Below, in pieces: positions 44,589 to 49,920 of a stretch of DNA of 64,000 nucleotides (position 1 is the stretch's first letter; the number at the start of each line of letters is the position of its first letter). A model generated the notes under the pieces. The model was not told where the DNA came from, did not search any database, and worked only from the letters and a program-made list of their open reading frames with translations. The stretch covers positions 558,001 through 622,000 of the forward strand of contig BOYI01000001.1 in assembly GCA_019651435.1 (NCBI GenBank), read 5' to 3'. The translations under genes were made by a program, and so were the position numbers. Source of the stretch: Pelagibacteraceae bacterium (GTDB taxonomy: Bacteria; Pseudomonadota; Alphaproteobacteria; HIMB59).

Positions 44589-45731
44589 ATGACATCAAAT
44601 TCACTAAAGAAACCAGAAAAATCTCTTCCTTTTCATTGGTATTATGACTCCAAGGTTTTTCAAAAAGAAATTGACAAAATTTTTAATGATGAGTGGATTT
44701 ATGTTTGCCATATTAATTCAATTGAAAAAAATCATTATAGAACCCTTAATATTAATAATAAAAATATTGTTTTAGTTAAAAGTAAGTCTGAAAATATTTC
44801 TGTATTTTATAACACTTGCCTACATCGTGGATCTCAAATTTTTGAGGATCAAGAAGGGAAAATGAAATCTCCTGTTATTGTCTGTCCTTATCATCAGTGG
44901 TCCTACGATGCTATGAGTGGATCCTTAATAAATACAACATCTATTAAATTAAATAACTTTGATAAAAAAAATTATAACCTTCAAAAAGTTAATTTTCATA
45001 TCTGGAAGGGTTTAGTTTTCATTAATCTTAAATCGAACAAGAAATTTAAAATTCAATCTATATTCCAATATTACGATAAAACAGTTGAAAAAATTGATTT
45101 AGAAAATTATGCAGTTGGTCATATTTGGAAAAAGAAAGTTCAATGTAATTGGAAAATTTATTGGGAGAATTATAGTGAGTGTTTACATTGTCCAAACATT
45201 CACCCAGAATTATCTGAATTAGTTCCTCTCTATCAAAGAAGACTTGTAGATATACAAGATCATCCTGAATGGGAAATTCTAAAAAAAACTAAATCACATA
45301 CAAAATATCATGGTGGATTAAAAAATGGTGCACAAACTTGGTCTTCAGATGGTACTTCACAAGGCCATACAATTGAGGAGGTCCAATCTGAGTTGGAGTC
45401 AAGAGGGCAGGTGTATATTTCAACATGGCCTACAATGTTTCTAGGGATATATGGGGACCATATTCGAATAGTAAGGCTTATTCCCATTAATTCTGAAGAG
45501 GTAGAGTTAACCGCAGAGTGGTTATTTCCAGAGTCAACTCTAGCTGATCGTGATTATAAAATGAGTAACGTGGTGGATTTTGGAATATTAGTTATGAACC
45601 AAGATGCGCGGATATCTGAGGTTAATCAACGAGGTGTTTACAATTTAGGAGAGTCTTCCGGGGTTCTAATGCCTGAAGAGTACATCATTAAAAATTTTCA
45701 CAAATATATAAAAAATAAAATTAGAAAATAA
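44589..45731 (+). CDS. Rieske-type aromatic-ring/N-methyl oxygenase alpha subunit
   Basis: A 380-residue oxygenase. The Rieske cluster ligands are CLHRGSQIF (C-x-H) and CPYHQWSYD (C-x2-H) at about residues 77-105. The mononuclear iron site is in WENYSECLHCPNIHPELSEL (about 191-210; two His), with the third ligand in the C-terminal domain (NQDARISEVNQRG). These enzymes hydroxylate aromatics or N-demethylate betaines and choline derivatives. No ferredoxin or reductase gene is in the window. The stop codon abuts a hairpin at 45731. Confidence 0.9.
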   Translation: MTSNSLKKPEKSLPFHWYYDSKVFQKEIDKIFNDEWIYVCHINSIEKNHYRTLNINNKNIVLVKSKSENISVFYNTCLHRGSQIFEDQEGKMKSPVIVCPYHQWSYDAMSGSLINTTSIKLNNFDKKNYNLQKVNFHIWKGLVFINLKSNKKFKIQSIFQYYDKTVEKIDLENYAVGHIWKKKVQCNWKIYWENYSECLHCPNIHPELSELVPLYQRRLVDIQDHPEWEILKKTKSHTKYHGGLKNGAQTWSSDGTSQGHTIEEVQSELESRGQVYISTWPTMFLGIYGDHIRIVRLIPINSEEVELTAEWLFPESTLADRDYKMSNVVDFGILVMNQDARISEVNQRGVYNLGESSGVLMPEEYIIKNFHKYIKNKIRK

Positions 45732-45776
45732 AAGAATGGCTTACCAAAGTTATGGACAATGGTAAGTCCATTCTTT
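45731..45776 (-). terminator. Strong hairpin, intrinsic terminator on the minus strand
   Basis: AAAGAATGGCTTACCA (45731-45746) pairs with TGGTAAG plus CCATTCTTT (45760-45776): 16 bp with one bulged T (45767) and a 13-nt loop. On the minus strand the stem is followed by a T-rich tract (TATTTTCTAATTTTATTTTT). On the plus strand no T-run follows, so it is mainly a minus-strand terminator. Confidence 0.65.
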
Positions 45777-45925
45777 GTATACACATCTTGGCTGGTGCCA
45801 AGATATCCTCTTATAGAAAGAGGAAATTTTTGTAAAGTTACGCTATGTTAACTTAACAACTTTGGTGGCGTCATCTTTGTAACCTCCGACCTTATACCTA
45901 TCCTTATAGGTATTTTAAGGTTACC
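45731..45925 (-). ncRNA. Candidate structured RNA (five stem-loops) in a convergent intergenic gap
   Basis: The 240-bp gap between two convergent genes contains, in plus-strand order: the 16-bp hairpin (45731-45776); ATCTTGGC-TGGT-GCCAAGAT, a perfect 8-bp stem with tetraloop (45785-45804); CCTCTT/AAGAGG (45807-45823); AAGTTA/TAACTT (45835-45854); and GTAACCT/AGGTTAC enclosing TACCTA/TAGGTA (45879-45924). ACCAAAGTT (45743-45751) is also complementary to AACTTTGGT (45858-45866). No coding frame of note is present and the stems are GC-richer than the surroundings. The minus strand is favoured because the last hairpin would then be followed by a T-tract. It matches no RNA family I recognise. Confidence 0.45.
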
Positions 45926-45971
45926 AAAAAAAAGTAAAAAGAAAACTATTAAAAAAAAATATTGTGGAAAA

Positions 45972-46574
45972 TTAACTTGGACAATTTTCTATTTCCCAAA
46001 ACTTATTTACTTTAGGCATTATTAAGGGAAGTTTTGCAATGACCAAGGGTCCAAATTTTTCAATATCTCCTGTAGCTAAAACATACTTACCTTGATTATC
46101 GTTATTGAAAACTCTAATTAAATACTCTCCTGCTTTATAAACATTAGTGCTTTTAAATTCAGCCCCATACTCTGGACCTATCCAATAAAACTTTTTACCA
46201 TATGGTTCATACCACTCCCACCATTCATGATTATTGCCATCTAATTCAAGTAAAGTTTCTTGCATTCCATTAGAGACATTTATTACATCAACAGAAAATT
46301 TATCAAAAGAATCACAGCCATCAATTTTTGGTGTGGTGATACCAACATAAAAGTTAAAGTCTATTTCTGACTTAATTGTATAGTAATGTGCATCACCCTC
46401 TAAAGTTCCATAGATAGCTTTTGATATTTCTGGTTTTTCAATCAAATAAGCGTTATCAGGAGAGTTGGTGTTATCCTCATTCAAAGCAGGTTGGTGAGCA
46501 GATACATTGAATATTGGGAGAGCAATTAATAATAATAGAGATAAATATTTCATACTATTTTTACTTTTATTCAA
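45972..46574 (-). CDS. Secreted beta-rich protein, unknown
   Basis: A 200-residue protein, or 193 from the better start MKYLSLLLL. A signal peptide (LSLLLLIALPIFNVSA) is followed by a mature domain starting HQPALNEDN, with Cys in GCDSF and ENCPS that could pair, and an aromatic-rich stretch NNHEWWEWYEPYGKKFYWIGP. The strand pattern AGEYLIRVFNNDNQGKYVLATGD resembles bacterial pre-peptidase C-terminal (PPC) beta-sandwich domains. Function unknown. The structured intergenic region lies directly downstream. Confidence 0.6.
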   Translation of the reverse strand: MNKSKNSMKYLSLLLLIALPIFNVSAHQPALNEDNTNSPDNAYLIEKPEISKAIYGTLEGDAHYYTIKSEIDFNFYVGITTPKIDGCDSFDKFSVDVINVSNGMQETLLELDGNNHEWWEWYEPYGKKFYWIGPEYGAEFKSTNVYKAGEYLIRVFNNDNQGKYVLATGDIEKFGPLVIAKLPLIMPKVNKFWEIENCPS

Positions 46575-46651
46575 CTTTGATGGATTGATATATCTGAGGC
46601 GATAATGGTCTTTGAAAAGTCAATATTTTTGCTATAAATCAAAATCTAATC

Positions 46652-47314
46652 ATGAATTTTGAACAAGCTAGATCTAATATGGTTTTAAATCAATTAAGAG
46701 CAAATCGTATTAGAGATATTGATTTAATTGAAAAAATTGAAGATTTTCCTCGAGAAGATTTATTCCCAAAAGAACTAAAGCACTTATCTTACTCTGATCA
46801 AATCATTACATTAGATCAAGGAAGATTTATCTTACCTCCACTAACATCAAGTCATTTAGTTCAATGTCTTGACTTAAAAAGCGATGATAAAGTATTGGAA
46901 GTTGGGTCTGGAATAGGAACTATCACTTCAATTATTAATCAGTATACAACCTCTATTGATTGTATCGAAAGCTCACCAACAATGATTGATATCTTTAAAA
47001 GAAGTTTAAGTGAAAACTTATTTCAAGCCAATCTTTTAAAAACCTCAATTGAAAGTTTTTTTTCAAACAAGAATCCGAATATCAATAAATATAATAAAAT
47101 TGTTATTAATGGCTCTCTTGATGTTGAGCCCTCTCAAATTATTAAAAAAGCATCAGAAAATGCAATTATAGTTTGTGTTATAGATAATTTAGAAATTAAG
47201 CATAAAATTGTAAAATATGTAAAAGTTAATAATAATTGCAATCGTTTTATTGTCGAAGAAGCTTTATCCCATTACCTCTATAAGTTTATTACTAAAGAAC
47301 CTTTTGTTTTTTAA
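46652..47314 (+). CDS. pcm: Protein-L-isoaspartate O-methyltransferase family protein
   Basis: A 220-residue SAM-dependent methyltransferase of the Pcm family: ARSNMVLNQLRANRIRD, the PREDLFPKEL block, ITLDQGRFILPPLTSSHLVQ, and SAM motif I VLEVGSGIGTITSII (about residue 80-94). It repairs isoaspartyl residues in studied members; this divergent alphaproteobacterial type may do otherwise. It lies 5 nt before valS. Confidence 0.83.
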   Translation: MNFEQARSNMVLNQLRANRIRDIDLIEKIEDFPREDLFPKELKHLSYSDQIITLDQGRFILPPLTSSHLVQCLDLKSDDKVLEVGSGIGTITSIINQYTTSIDCIESSPTMIDIFKRSLSENLFQANLLKTSIESFFSNKNPNINKYNKIVINGSLDVEPSQIIKKASENAIIVCVIDNLEIKHKIVKYVKVNNNCNRFIVEEALSHYLYKFITKEPFVF

Positions 47315-47319
47315 TTTTC

Positions 47320-49920
47320 ATGGATGACCTCCAAGATAAAAAAAAATATGAAAGTGAAATTTATCAAAATTGGATAGATCAAGGTTGTTTTAAACCTTCA
47401 TATAACTTTGATAAAAATTTTTCTATCTGTATCCCCCCTCCAAATGTTACAGGCTCTTTACATATGGGCCACGCTCTTAATAATACCATCCAAGATATTT
47501 TAGTTCGTTACCATCGCATGAATGGTTTTAATACTTTATGGCAACCGGGCACTGATCACGCTGGTATTGCTACACAAATGGTTGTTGAAAGAAATTTAGA
47601 AAAAGAAAATATTTTTCGAAAAGACCTATCTCGTGAAGAATTCATTGAAAAGATTTGGGAATGGAAAGAATACTCAGGTTCTACCATCATCAATCAGCTA
47701 AAAAGACTTGGTAGTTCTTGTGATTGGTCAAGAGAACGTTTTACAATGGATGAAGGTCTTTCAGCAGCCGTTAGAAAAGTTTTTGTTTCTCTTTATAAAG
47801 AAGGTTTAATTTATAAAGGACAATCTTTAGTAAACTGGGATACCAAATTTAAAACTGCTATTTCAGATTTAGAGGTTGTGCCCACTGACGTAAGCACACA
47901 AATTTATTATATCAAATATCCTGCATCTAATGGCAGTTCTATTACTGTAGCTACTGTGAGACCCGAAACGATATTTGGTGACACCGCTATAGCAGTTAAC
48001 CCAAGTGATGAACGTTATCAATCAATGAAAGATGTTACTTTCACAATTCCTTTAACAAATAGATCTGTACCATTAATTTTTGATGAGTATTCCGATCCCG
48101 AGATGGGCAGTGGTGCTGTTAAGATTACTCCCGCTCATGATTTTAATGATTTTGAAGTAGGCAAAAGACATAATTTAGAACTTTTAAATATTTTAAATGA
48201 TGATGGTTCATTGAATGAAAATTGTCCTGCTGAGTATCAAGGAATGGATCGTTTTGATGCAAGAAAACAGGTTGTTAAATCTCTAAAGGAGAATGGTTTC
48301 ATTGAAAAAATTGAAGATTACAAAACAACAATCCCTTATGGGGATCGATCAAATACAATCGTTGAGCCATACTTAACTCACCAATGGTTTTGTAATGCGG
48401 AAGAACTAGCCAAACAGGCTATGAAAGTAGTTAATGATGGAGAGACTAAATTTTTTCCTCAGAATTGGGAAAAAACATATTTTCAGTGGATGGAAAATAT
48501 CAGACCTTGGTGTATTTCTCGTCAAATTTGGTGGGGACATCAAATTCCTGTTTGGTATGGCCCAGATGGAAAAGAATTTTGTGCTGAAACAGAAGCAGAA
48601 GCAAGAGATCAAGCTATTGATTATTACAAAGCTGATAAAATTATATTAAAGCGCGATCAAGATGTATTAGATACGTGGTTCTCATCTGCTTTATGGCCTT
48701 TTTCAACATTGGGATGGCCAGAAAAAGAAAAAACGCTTGAAAACTTCTACCCAAATTCAGTTCTTGTAACAGGCTTTGATATCATCTTCTTTTGGGTTGC
48801 TCGAATGATGATGATGGGCAACAAGTTTATGTCACAAACTCCATTTCATACTGTCTATGTTCATGCTCTTGTAAGAGATGAAAAAGGACAAAAATGTCAA
48901 AATCAAAAGGAATGTCATCGATCCTCTTGAAATAATTGATAAATACGGTGCTGATACTCTTCGTTTTACCTTAACTTCACTCAATACTCCTGGCCGAGAT
49001 GTTCGATTAAGTGAGCAGAGAATTGCTGGTTATCGTAATTTTGTCACTAAAATTACTAATGCATATAAATTTGCTGAATTTAAGAAAATATATCCTTCAA
49101 AAGATGATCCTAAGCAATTGGTTCCAAAACATATTTTTAATCAATGGATTTTCAATGAATTTCAAAATCTTTATAAAAACGTTCAACTTAATTATCAAAA
49201 CTACTATTTTCATGAAGTTGCCAATCAACTTTATCATTTCACATGGCATAGTTTTTGTGATTGGTACATCGAACTTTCCAAAAATTTATTAGACTCAGAT
49301 GAATATCGAGAGGAAACAACTTATACGTTTCATTTAATTTTTAATTCCCTTCTTCAGTTATTGCATCCAATTATACCATTTATTACTGAGAAATTATGGT
49401 CATATAACAACCAAAACATTTTGATGACAAATCAATGGAACTATCAAGATATTAAAATTGATAATCAATCCATTGAGTCAGCCAACAACTTTATTGAGTT
49501 CATTGAAGAATATAGATCTATTGAGAAGCTCTTTGATATTAAAAAAGAACATGAGGTATTGATTTATTCTTCTAGTGAAAACTTACAAAAATTATTTTTG
49601 GGAAACCAAGAAGTTTTTGAATTTTTAACCCGAAAAAAATTATCCTTAAAGTCATTAACAAATGGTGTTTCTTTACCTTTTAAAAACTTTGATTATGAAA
49701 TTGAAACTGATCAAATTAATAAAGATAAGATTATAAAAAAATTAAGTGAAAATTCTGAAAATTTGAAAAAGAAAAAATAGGTATTGATAAAAATTTGAAT
49801 AATCAAAATTTCGTTGACCGTGCTCCTAAGGATTTAATTGAACAAAATAAAAATAGGCAAAATGCTATTAGTCTGGAATTATCAAAAATTGATAGTATAT
49901 TAAGTAATCTAAATGGTTGA
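47320..49920 (+). CDS. valS: Valyl-tRNA synthetase (frameshifted)
   Basis: A class I synthetase. The HIGH region CIPPPNVTGSLHMGHALNNT is at about residue 42, and the editing domain shows TVRPETIFGDTAIAVNP and GSGAVKITPAHDFNDFEVG. WFSSALWPFSTLGWP precedes the KMSKS region, which is split by two indels near 48895-48915 (KMSKSKGNVIDPLE when repaired), then GADTLRFTL. The anticodon-binding domain follows. A shift near 49780 is needed to reach the last coiled-coil part and the stop at 49920. About 867 residues. It overlaps ilvD by 8 bp. Confidence 0.93.

What the first reader, a model, noticed from the sequence alone, without database searches (positions are those of the whole stretch)
45731..45925. 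Candidate undescribed structured RNA: five stem-loops in a convergent intergenic region
Seen: a 16-bp hairpin with one bulge, a perfect 8-bp stem with tetraloop, a 6-7-bp stem, a 6-bp stem and a nested two-stem element, packed into about 190 bp with no convincing coding frame and with GC-richer stems than the flanks. Known: in AT-rich genomes, locally GC-rich intergenic segments are often structured RNAs. Inference: a minus-strand RNA or long structured 3' UTR of the secreted-protein gene, ended by the first hairpin plus T-tract. It does not look like tmRNA, RNase P, SRP or 6S RNA.
Basis: partly seen in the sequence, partly recalled or inferred. Interest (0 to 1): 0.7.

Follow-up and report, generated by a model that had tools for sequence, protein, structure and literature searches.

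The report
Small RNA gene in marine bacteria
The gap holds a small RNA gene, not found in the libraries searched, that a group of tiny ocean bacteria keeps nearly unchanged while the DNA around it has changed; it looks like an ordinary kind of regulatory RNA with an unusual miniature protein start inside it, and its function is not known.

Summary
In detail: window 45731-45925 folds far better than shuffled sequence (z -6.3 plus, -7.0 minus). It matches no Rfam family at threshold. A covariance model finds one copy each in 33 of 162 genomes of its order, all among the 52 of its own genus, probably HIMB59/AEGEAN-169.

Comparison redraws it. The gene reads most likely on the minus strand: promoter-like TGnTAnnnT at 45926-45918, predicted 5' end near 45911, then a 53-nt core, 46/53 identical between clades whose four-fold sites agree at 44%. 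The core holds a 5' hairpin and a miniature reading frame (Shine-Dalgarno-like sequence plus ATG, M-x-P-P-K/M) in 33 of 33. The showy 3' hairpins occur only in the window's clade (5 of 33); representatives of the other clades fold no better than chance.

It is not a 3' UTR of the secreted-protein gene: 8 of 33 copies lack that gene beside them, and the convergent neighbour changes too. Hfq and CsrA were not found in 4 genomes, nor a convincing antisense target. Best reading: a new, lineage-restricted small RNA; mechanism unproven; no transcript seen.

The parts
45918..45926 (-). promoter-like extended -10 (TG-n-TAnnnT; here TGGTAACCT), ending 6 nt before the predicted first base of the RNA
   Evidence: TGnTAnnnT at this exact spacing in 30 of 33 members, with the middle bases varying. 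The three others: G026 has TG directly before TAAAAT, G030 has it one base further away, and in G032 my anchor is off by one. The motif is not enriched upstream of G030 genes, so this rests on conservation alone.
45731..45911 (-). predicted small RNA gene, about 181 nt in this clade
   Evidence: homologues, one per genome, in 33 of 162 genomes of the order, all in the own genus; fold z -6.82. Both ends are inferred.
45859..45911 (-). conserved 53-nt 5' core of the RNA
   Evidence: 46/53 identical to clades B (G018) and C (G004), where four-fold sites of the neighbouring PCMT gene agree at 44% (G017) and 50% (G004) of 36; alignments
45896..45911 (-). hp1, 5'-terminal hairpin ACCUAU-AAGG-AUAGGU
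   Evidence: present in 32 of 33 by pattern; 163 of 165 cells Watson-Crick and 2 G-U on the minus reading. G032 (L145) is altered.
45882..45887 (-). Shine-Dalgarno-like sequence GGAGGU, 7 nt before ATG
   Evidence: GGAGGT in 28 of 33, TGAGGT in 4, AGAGGT in 1
45848..45874 (-). miniature reading frame ATG ACG CCA CCA AAG TTG TTA AGT TAA (MTPPKLLS)
   Evidence: M-x-P-P-(K/M) in 33 of 33; exactly MKPPK in 25 of 33
45830..45859 (-). hp2, weak hairpin overlapping the end of the mini-ORF
   Evidence: fold; -6.0 to 0 kcal/mol across 33 members; 2 of 5 pairs with two-sided changes
45807..45823 (-). hp3, window clade only
   Evidence: 35 of 35 cells paired in 5 sequences, two-sided changes at 2 of 7 pairs, 1 G-U on the minus reading (arms registered by hand)
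45783..45806 (-). hp4, window clade only, 8-bp core with tetraloop
   Evidence: 37 of 40 cells paired, two-sided changes at 3 of 8 pairs (arms registered by hand)
45731..45776 (-). hp5, terminator-like hairpin followed on the minus strand by UAUUUUCUAAUUUU, window clade only
   Evidence: sequence and fold; almost invariant in 5 of 5 clade members, the tail less U-rich in G030. The pattern scan for terminators lists no minus-strand site here (it allows loops of 3-8 only).

Best explanation
A small, independently transcribed RNA gene on the minus strand, restricted so far to one genus of streamlined marine Alphaproteobacteria. Shown here: strong conservation of the first 53 nt, one copy per genome found, persistence when both neighbouring genes change, and absence from the same place in some relatives. 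Inferred: RNA polymerase starts near 45911 from an extended -10 promoter. The transcript begins with a protective 5' hairpin, carries a conserved purine-rich stretch with a Shine-Dalgarno-like sequence and a mini-ORF (M-x-P-P-K/M), and ends at or after hp2 or, in the window's clade, at hp5 after two extra stem-loops. The most likely use is as a regulatory small RNA acting in trans through the conserved stretch, by pairing with RNA or by binding ribosomes or a protein, without Hfq or CsrA. Which of these applies is not shown.
For: One match per genome in 33 of 52 genus genomes. Core 46/53 identical where PCMT four-fold sites agree at 44-50%. Three neighbourhoods checked in 33 of 33: Rieske convergent and secreted gene upstream (5), TauD-like convergent and secreted gene upstream (20), TauD-like convergent and no secreted gene (8) (TauD by Pfam). 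TGnTAnnnT at fixed spacing before the 5' hairpin in 30 of 33. On the minus reading, pairs that change to G-U stay paired in hp1 (2 cells), hp3 (1) and an alternative hp5 pairing (2). No Rfam match at threshold. Gaps of only 60-90 bp at the same place in 5 genomes without the RNA.
Against: No transcript was seen. Clade B and C RNAs fold no better than shuffles. By eye, hp2 in L011 carries two changes that pair on the plus strand and not on the minus; so do one change in L028 and one end pair of hp5 in G026. No convincing antisense target: the best G030 target is reached by 13 of 60 shuffles and its site is not kept in relatives; the best of 635 ortholog pairs is reached by 18 of 40 shuffles. 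The promoter motif is not enriched genome-wide. Clade B has no clear terminator. Covariation over the 23 cores is slight.
Confidence: 0.66

Rival explanations
1. The transcript is chiefly a miniature mRNA. The conserved unit is the ribosome-binding site and the short M-x-P-P-K frame, which captures ribosomes, makes a tiny peptide, or senses Pro-Pro decoding.
For: SD-like hexamer plus ATG plus x-P-P in 33 of 33. A 6-base or longer SD match is found at 90 of 1409 G030 gene calls, against 29 of 3000 random positions.
Against: The changes seen in the first five codons alter the residue (AAG to ACG, GAG or ATG); no silent change was seen at the two proline codons, so selection looks nucleotide-level. 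The predicted clade B and C fold pairs the SD with the proline codons in several members.
Confidence: 0.2
2. A structured 3' UTR of a neighbouring gene: the secreted-protein gene on the minus strand, or the Rieske or TauD-like gene on the plus strand.
For: Lies between convergent genes in clades A and B; hp5 begins at the last base of the Rieske stop codon.
Against: The secreted-protein gene is missing beside 8 of 33 copies, and the plus-strand neighbour is Rieske in 5 but TauD-like in 28, while the core stays. The plus reading of the core ends in no U-tract.
Confidence: 0.08
3. A conserved DNA element (a protein-binding or recombination site), not an RNA.
For: Conservation is mainly of sequence; hp1 is also a DNA inverted repeat; clade B and C folds are not significant.
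Against: Two-sided changes in hp3 and hp4, the order of promoter-like site, hairpin and SD, and G-U pairs kept on one strand. In G030 the copy at 0.98 Mb lies about 80 kb from the nearer GC-skew extreme (0.29 and 1.06 Mb), so it is not at the turning point itself.
Confidence: 0.06

Closest known systems
Trans-acting bacterial small RNAs (general class, recalled)
   Same: short stand-alone gene between convergent genes, 5' hairpin, conserved largely unpaired stretch, terminator-like end in part of the family
   Different: Hfq not found in the 4 genomes searched; no target found; carries an SD-like sequence and start codon inside the conserved stretch
Dual-function small RNAs that also encode a small protein (SgrS/SgrT type, recalled; peptide coding by sRNAs in PMC5521070, abstract opening seen in a search listing only)
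   Same: small RNA containing a reading frame with a good SD
   Different: the frame is only 5-12 codons and shows no silent changes in its first five
Translated minigenes (PMC8708949, abstract opening seen in a search listing only)
   Same: very short frame with its own SD
   Different: stand-alone gene, five or more codons, no downstream gene in the same direction
Candidate structured RNAs of 'Cand. Pelagibacter ubique' (PMC2704228; abstract opening in a listing and two passages seen, one of them in the reference list)
   Same: RNA candidates from AT-rich streamlined marine Alphaproteobacteria
   Different: the passage seen describes a hairpin motif near putative branched amino acid transporter genes; ours matches no Rfam family. 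I did not compare the paper's motifs one by one.

Membership tests
Stand-alone bacterial small RNA gene | conserved independently of its neighbouring genes | tested here: met
   three neighbourhoods across 33 of 33 copies: 5, 20 and 8
Stand-alone bacterial small RNA gene | own promoter | tested here: inconclusive
   TGnTAnnnT at fixed spacing in 30 of 33, but the motif is not enriched upstream of G030 genes
Stand-alone bacterial small RNA gene | own terminator | tested here: inconclusive
   hp5 in clade A and a CCCUUA/UAAGGG hairpin in part of clade C; no clear one in clade B; none listed by the pattern scan on the minus strand of the window gap
Stand-alone bacterial small RNA gene | transcript observed | not testable with these tools
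   no transcriptome data held
Hfq-dependent sRNA | Hfq encoded in the genome | tested here: not met
   PF17209 in 0 of 4 genomes (G000, G030, G017, G004); the control finds it in 5 of 14
CsrB/RsmZ-type CsrA sponge | CsrA encoded in the genome | tested here: not met
   PF02599 in 0 of 4 genomes; the control finds it in 3 of 14
Any Rfam 15 family (tmRNA, RNase P, SRP, 6S and riboswitches included) | score at or above the gathering threshold | tested here: not met
   only 3 tRNAs in the window, none of them in the gap; RefA1 at 24.4 bits against a threshold of 94; nothing at E up to 1 in L009, L026 and L145
Cis-regulatory leader or riboswitch | gene downstream in the same direction | tested here: not met
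   on the minus strand the next gene is convergent in 33 of 33 (in L008 and L030 the gene is cut by a contig end)
Dual-function or peptide-coding sRNA | peptide-level selection (silent changes exceed altering ones) | tested here: not met
   three kinds of altering codon change and no silent change seen in the first five codons; few changes in all, so weak
Dual-function or peptide-coding sRNA | translation | not testable with these tools
   needs ribosome profiling or toeprinting

The most novel reading that the evidence does not exclude
A ribosome-coupled small RNA in bacteria where neither Hfq nor CsrA was found: the conserved function is a short Pro-Pro minigene under a Shine-Dalgarno sequence that is strong for this genome. 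In the window's clade, ribosome occupancy of the proline codons would decide between the terminator hp5 and an alternative pairing: the mini-ORF segment ACCAAAGU(U) can pair with AACUUUGGU inside hp5. That partner is present in 5 of 5 clade members and in 0 of the 28 others within 150 nt. This would set whether transcription runs on antisense into the Rieske oxygenase gene. The antisense part is clade-specific and speculative.
Probability: 0.12. Interest if true: 0.6.

Novelty: new member of a known kind. Interest (0 to 1): 0.38.

Why it matters
Streamlined ocean bacteria keep very little non-coding DNA (coding densities of 93.6-96.8% are given for AEGEAN-169 in PMC10308909, passage seen). A small RNA held nearly unchanged across much of this genus, where no Hfq was found, is a clear starting point for RNA regulation in an abundant, poorly studied group. 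Its mini-ORF makes a simple ribosome-based mechanism testable.

Tried and rejected
3' UTR of the secreted-protein gene: rejected, because 8 of 33 copies have no such gene beside them.

Housekeeping RNA (tmRNA, RNase P, SRP, 6S): no Rfam match, and the model finds no copy in 19 of 52 genus genomes (strict filters, and many genomes are incomplete). At its usual place it is absent in 7 of the 7 such genomes inspected (G019, G002, G023, G029, G033, G024, G015); the other 12 were not inspected there. I did not look for the housekeeping RNAs themselves elsewhere in the genome.

CsrA sponge and Hfq sRNA: no CsrA or Hfq found in 4 genomes.

Antisense target: proA was the top G030 hit and tempting because of the Pro-Pro frame. 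Against shuffles the list is ordinary: rank 1 reached by 13 of 60, rank 5 by 38, rank 20 by 12. The proA site is particular to G030: 42 of 52 genus genomes have a proA match, 30 were held as loci, 28 of the other 29 differ at the site, and G019 was misread by my script. The joint search over 635 ortholog pairs (part of G018 only) gave rank 1 reached by 18 of 40 column shuffles, rank 5 by 1 of 40 and rank 10 by 6 of 40; I count this as no evidence. These are simple duplex energies without accessibility.

Promoter enrichment: no excess of TATAAT or of the extended -10 in 436 G030 upstream regions.

Wider spread: covariance model, 0 of the 110 other genomes of the order, and among 385 of the class only 3, all in the own genus. 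Exact pattern, 1 of 398 of a phylum draw (the own genome) and none in viral contigs. No metagenome scan was available, and the one genome-contig scan went to the secreted protein (2 loci).

Faults of mine: MAFFT misregistered hp3, so the hp3 and hp4 arms were registered by hand, which favours pairing. The hp5a line for L005 is misregistered and not used. The L146 slice was misplaced; one search repeats it nearer the start.

Full report
Setting. The window is G000:C1:558001-622000 of a 1.35 Mb genome. G030, one contig of 1,410,127 bp at 32.3% GC, is probably isolate HIMB59 (its genome length is recalled, not from a call), which would place the genus in HIMB59/AEGEAN-169. The gap lies between a Rieske ring-hydroxylating oxygenase gene (44589-45731 +) and a 200-aa gene without a Pfam match (45972-46574 -); a PCMT-like methyltransferase gene follows (46652-47314 +).

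Observation. Both strands fold far better than 200 shuffles. Rfam gives nothing at threshold except three tRNAs elsewhere. The best sub-threshold match, RefA1, has 24.4 bits against a threshold of 94.

Relatives. BLAST with the gap, over 150 genomes including the own, found the own copy and 30 genus-mates at E below 1e-6; hits in other genera of the order were short, with E of 0.002 or more. A covariance model built from 23 distinct cores found 33 of 162 genomes in the order, one copy each, all in the own genus of 52 (this search uses strict filters that lose weak matches). In a class-wide draw of 385 it found only 3, all in the own genus. A strict pattern found 1 of 398 in a phylum draw, the own genome, and none in viral contigs. 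No second copy of the core was seen in the whole of G030.

Three clades. Checked by tblastn in 33 of 33 loci. Clade A (5, the window's): Rieske convergent, secreted-protein gene upstream on the same strand. Clade B (20): TauD-like gene convergent (Pfam TauD, 4.7e-36, for one representative), secreted gene upstream. Clade C (8): TauD-like gene convergent, no secreted gene, so that the RNA and PCMT are divergent neighbours. The TauD-like gene is cut by a contig end in L008 and L030; PCMT is seen in 32 of 33 (L013 ends before it). The RNA therefore persists while both neighbours change. In five genomes without it (G019, G002, G023, G029, G033) the Rieske gene is followed by PCMT after only 60-90 bp; in G024 and G015 another gene lies there. 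A PCMT tree of 39 rows needs five changes for presence or absence, and starred branches force at least three. Several losses are the simplest reading, though many branches are weak.

Conserved unit. Read on the minus strand, a TGnTAnnnT motif with variable middle bases ends 6 nt before ACCUA...UAGGU in 30 of 33 members. This is where an extended -10 would place a transcript start, with hp1 as the very 5' end. The first 53 nt of the window's core are 46/53 identical to clades B (G018) and C (G004), while four-fold sites of PCMT agree at 44% of 36 (G017, clade B) and 50% of 36 (G004). All 33 members have an SD-like hexamer (GGAGGT 28, TGAGGT 4, AGAGGT 1) and an ATG opening a frame M-x-P-P-(K/M): MKPPK 25, MTPPKLLS 3, and one each of MKPPKSKS, MKPPKYIS, MEPPK, MEPPKNYLKNTT and MKPPM. 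The coding changes seen in the first five codons alter the residue, and the proline codons are CCA CCA in the members aligned or printed. Selection therefore looks nucleotide-level, and the frame is not proven to act as a peptide.

Structure. In clade A, hp3 and hp4 keep pairing through two-sided changes at 2 and 3 pairs (arms registered by hand). hp1 is almost invariant. hp2 has 2 pairs with two-sided changes, and its energy ranges from -6.0 to 0 kcal/mol. On the 23-row alignment the covariation term is small, and the number of pairs with two-sided changes is no more than shuffles give (267 of 500 reach it), though no shuffle of 500 reaches the covariation score (related sequences can do this without structure). 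Strand: changes to G-U on the minus reading, which would break on the plus, occur in hp1 (2 cells), hp3 (1) and an alternative hp5 pairing (2). Against this, by eye, L011 has two hp2 changes and L028 one change that would pair only on the plus strand, and G026 has one such cell at the end of hp5. The balance favours the minus strand but is not decisive. Clade B and C RNAs are not more stable than shuffles (z -0.86 to +0.24), so 'structured RNA' is true of clade A and not of the family.

Function. Hfq and CsrA are not found in four genus genomes. Target searches gave nothing convincing. An SD match of 6 or more bases occurs at 90 of 1409 G030 gene calls and 29 of 3000 random positions (a simple caller that favours SD-bearing starts), so the mini-ORF's SD is strong for this genome. 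I commit to a trans-acting small RNA as most likely, with ribosome capture by the mini-ORF as the main rival. No call shows a transcript.

Print. Searches for HIMB59 with 'small RNA' (1 paper listed), Pelagibacter with 'structured RNA' and 'intergenic' (15 of 19 listed), AEGEAN-169 with HIMB59 (10 of 14 listed) and ocean metatranscriptomic small RNAs (3 listed) showed no description of this RNA in titles or abstract openings; I saw passages of three of these papers. The Red Sea TSS paper (PMC5069720) does not contain 'HIMB59' in its main text. These searches cover only the held open-access library, and supplements were not available.

Noticed in passing
window 47320-48930 and 48878-49780 (+): The valyl-tRNA synthetase-like gene is split into two overlapping frames (class I synthetase core, then anticodon-binding domain), while G030 has one 868-aa frame there. 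A frameshift, perhaps an assembly or sequencing error.
   Followed up: partly
G000 contig C2 around 82875-84123: proA of the window's own genome is matched in two pieces with several stops in the first, again suggesting indel errors in this assembly, which is rated only 69% complete despite 1.35 Mb.
   Followed up: no
window 44589-46652 and the same place in relatives: The stretch upstream of the PCMT gene is a variable locus: Rieske or TauD-like gene, with or without the RNA and the secreted-protein gene, or another gene entirely.
   Followed up: partly
window 45972-46574 (-): The 200-aa, apparently secreted protein has no Pfam match but has relatives at 45-48% identity in 5 of the 23 genomes of other genera searched.
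   Followed up: no
window 45731-45776 (-): hp5 is almost invariant, loop included, in 5 of 5 clade A members, more than a plain terminator needs.
   Followed up: no
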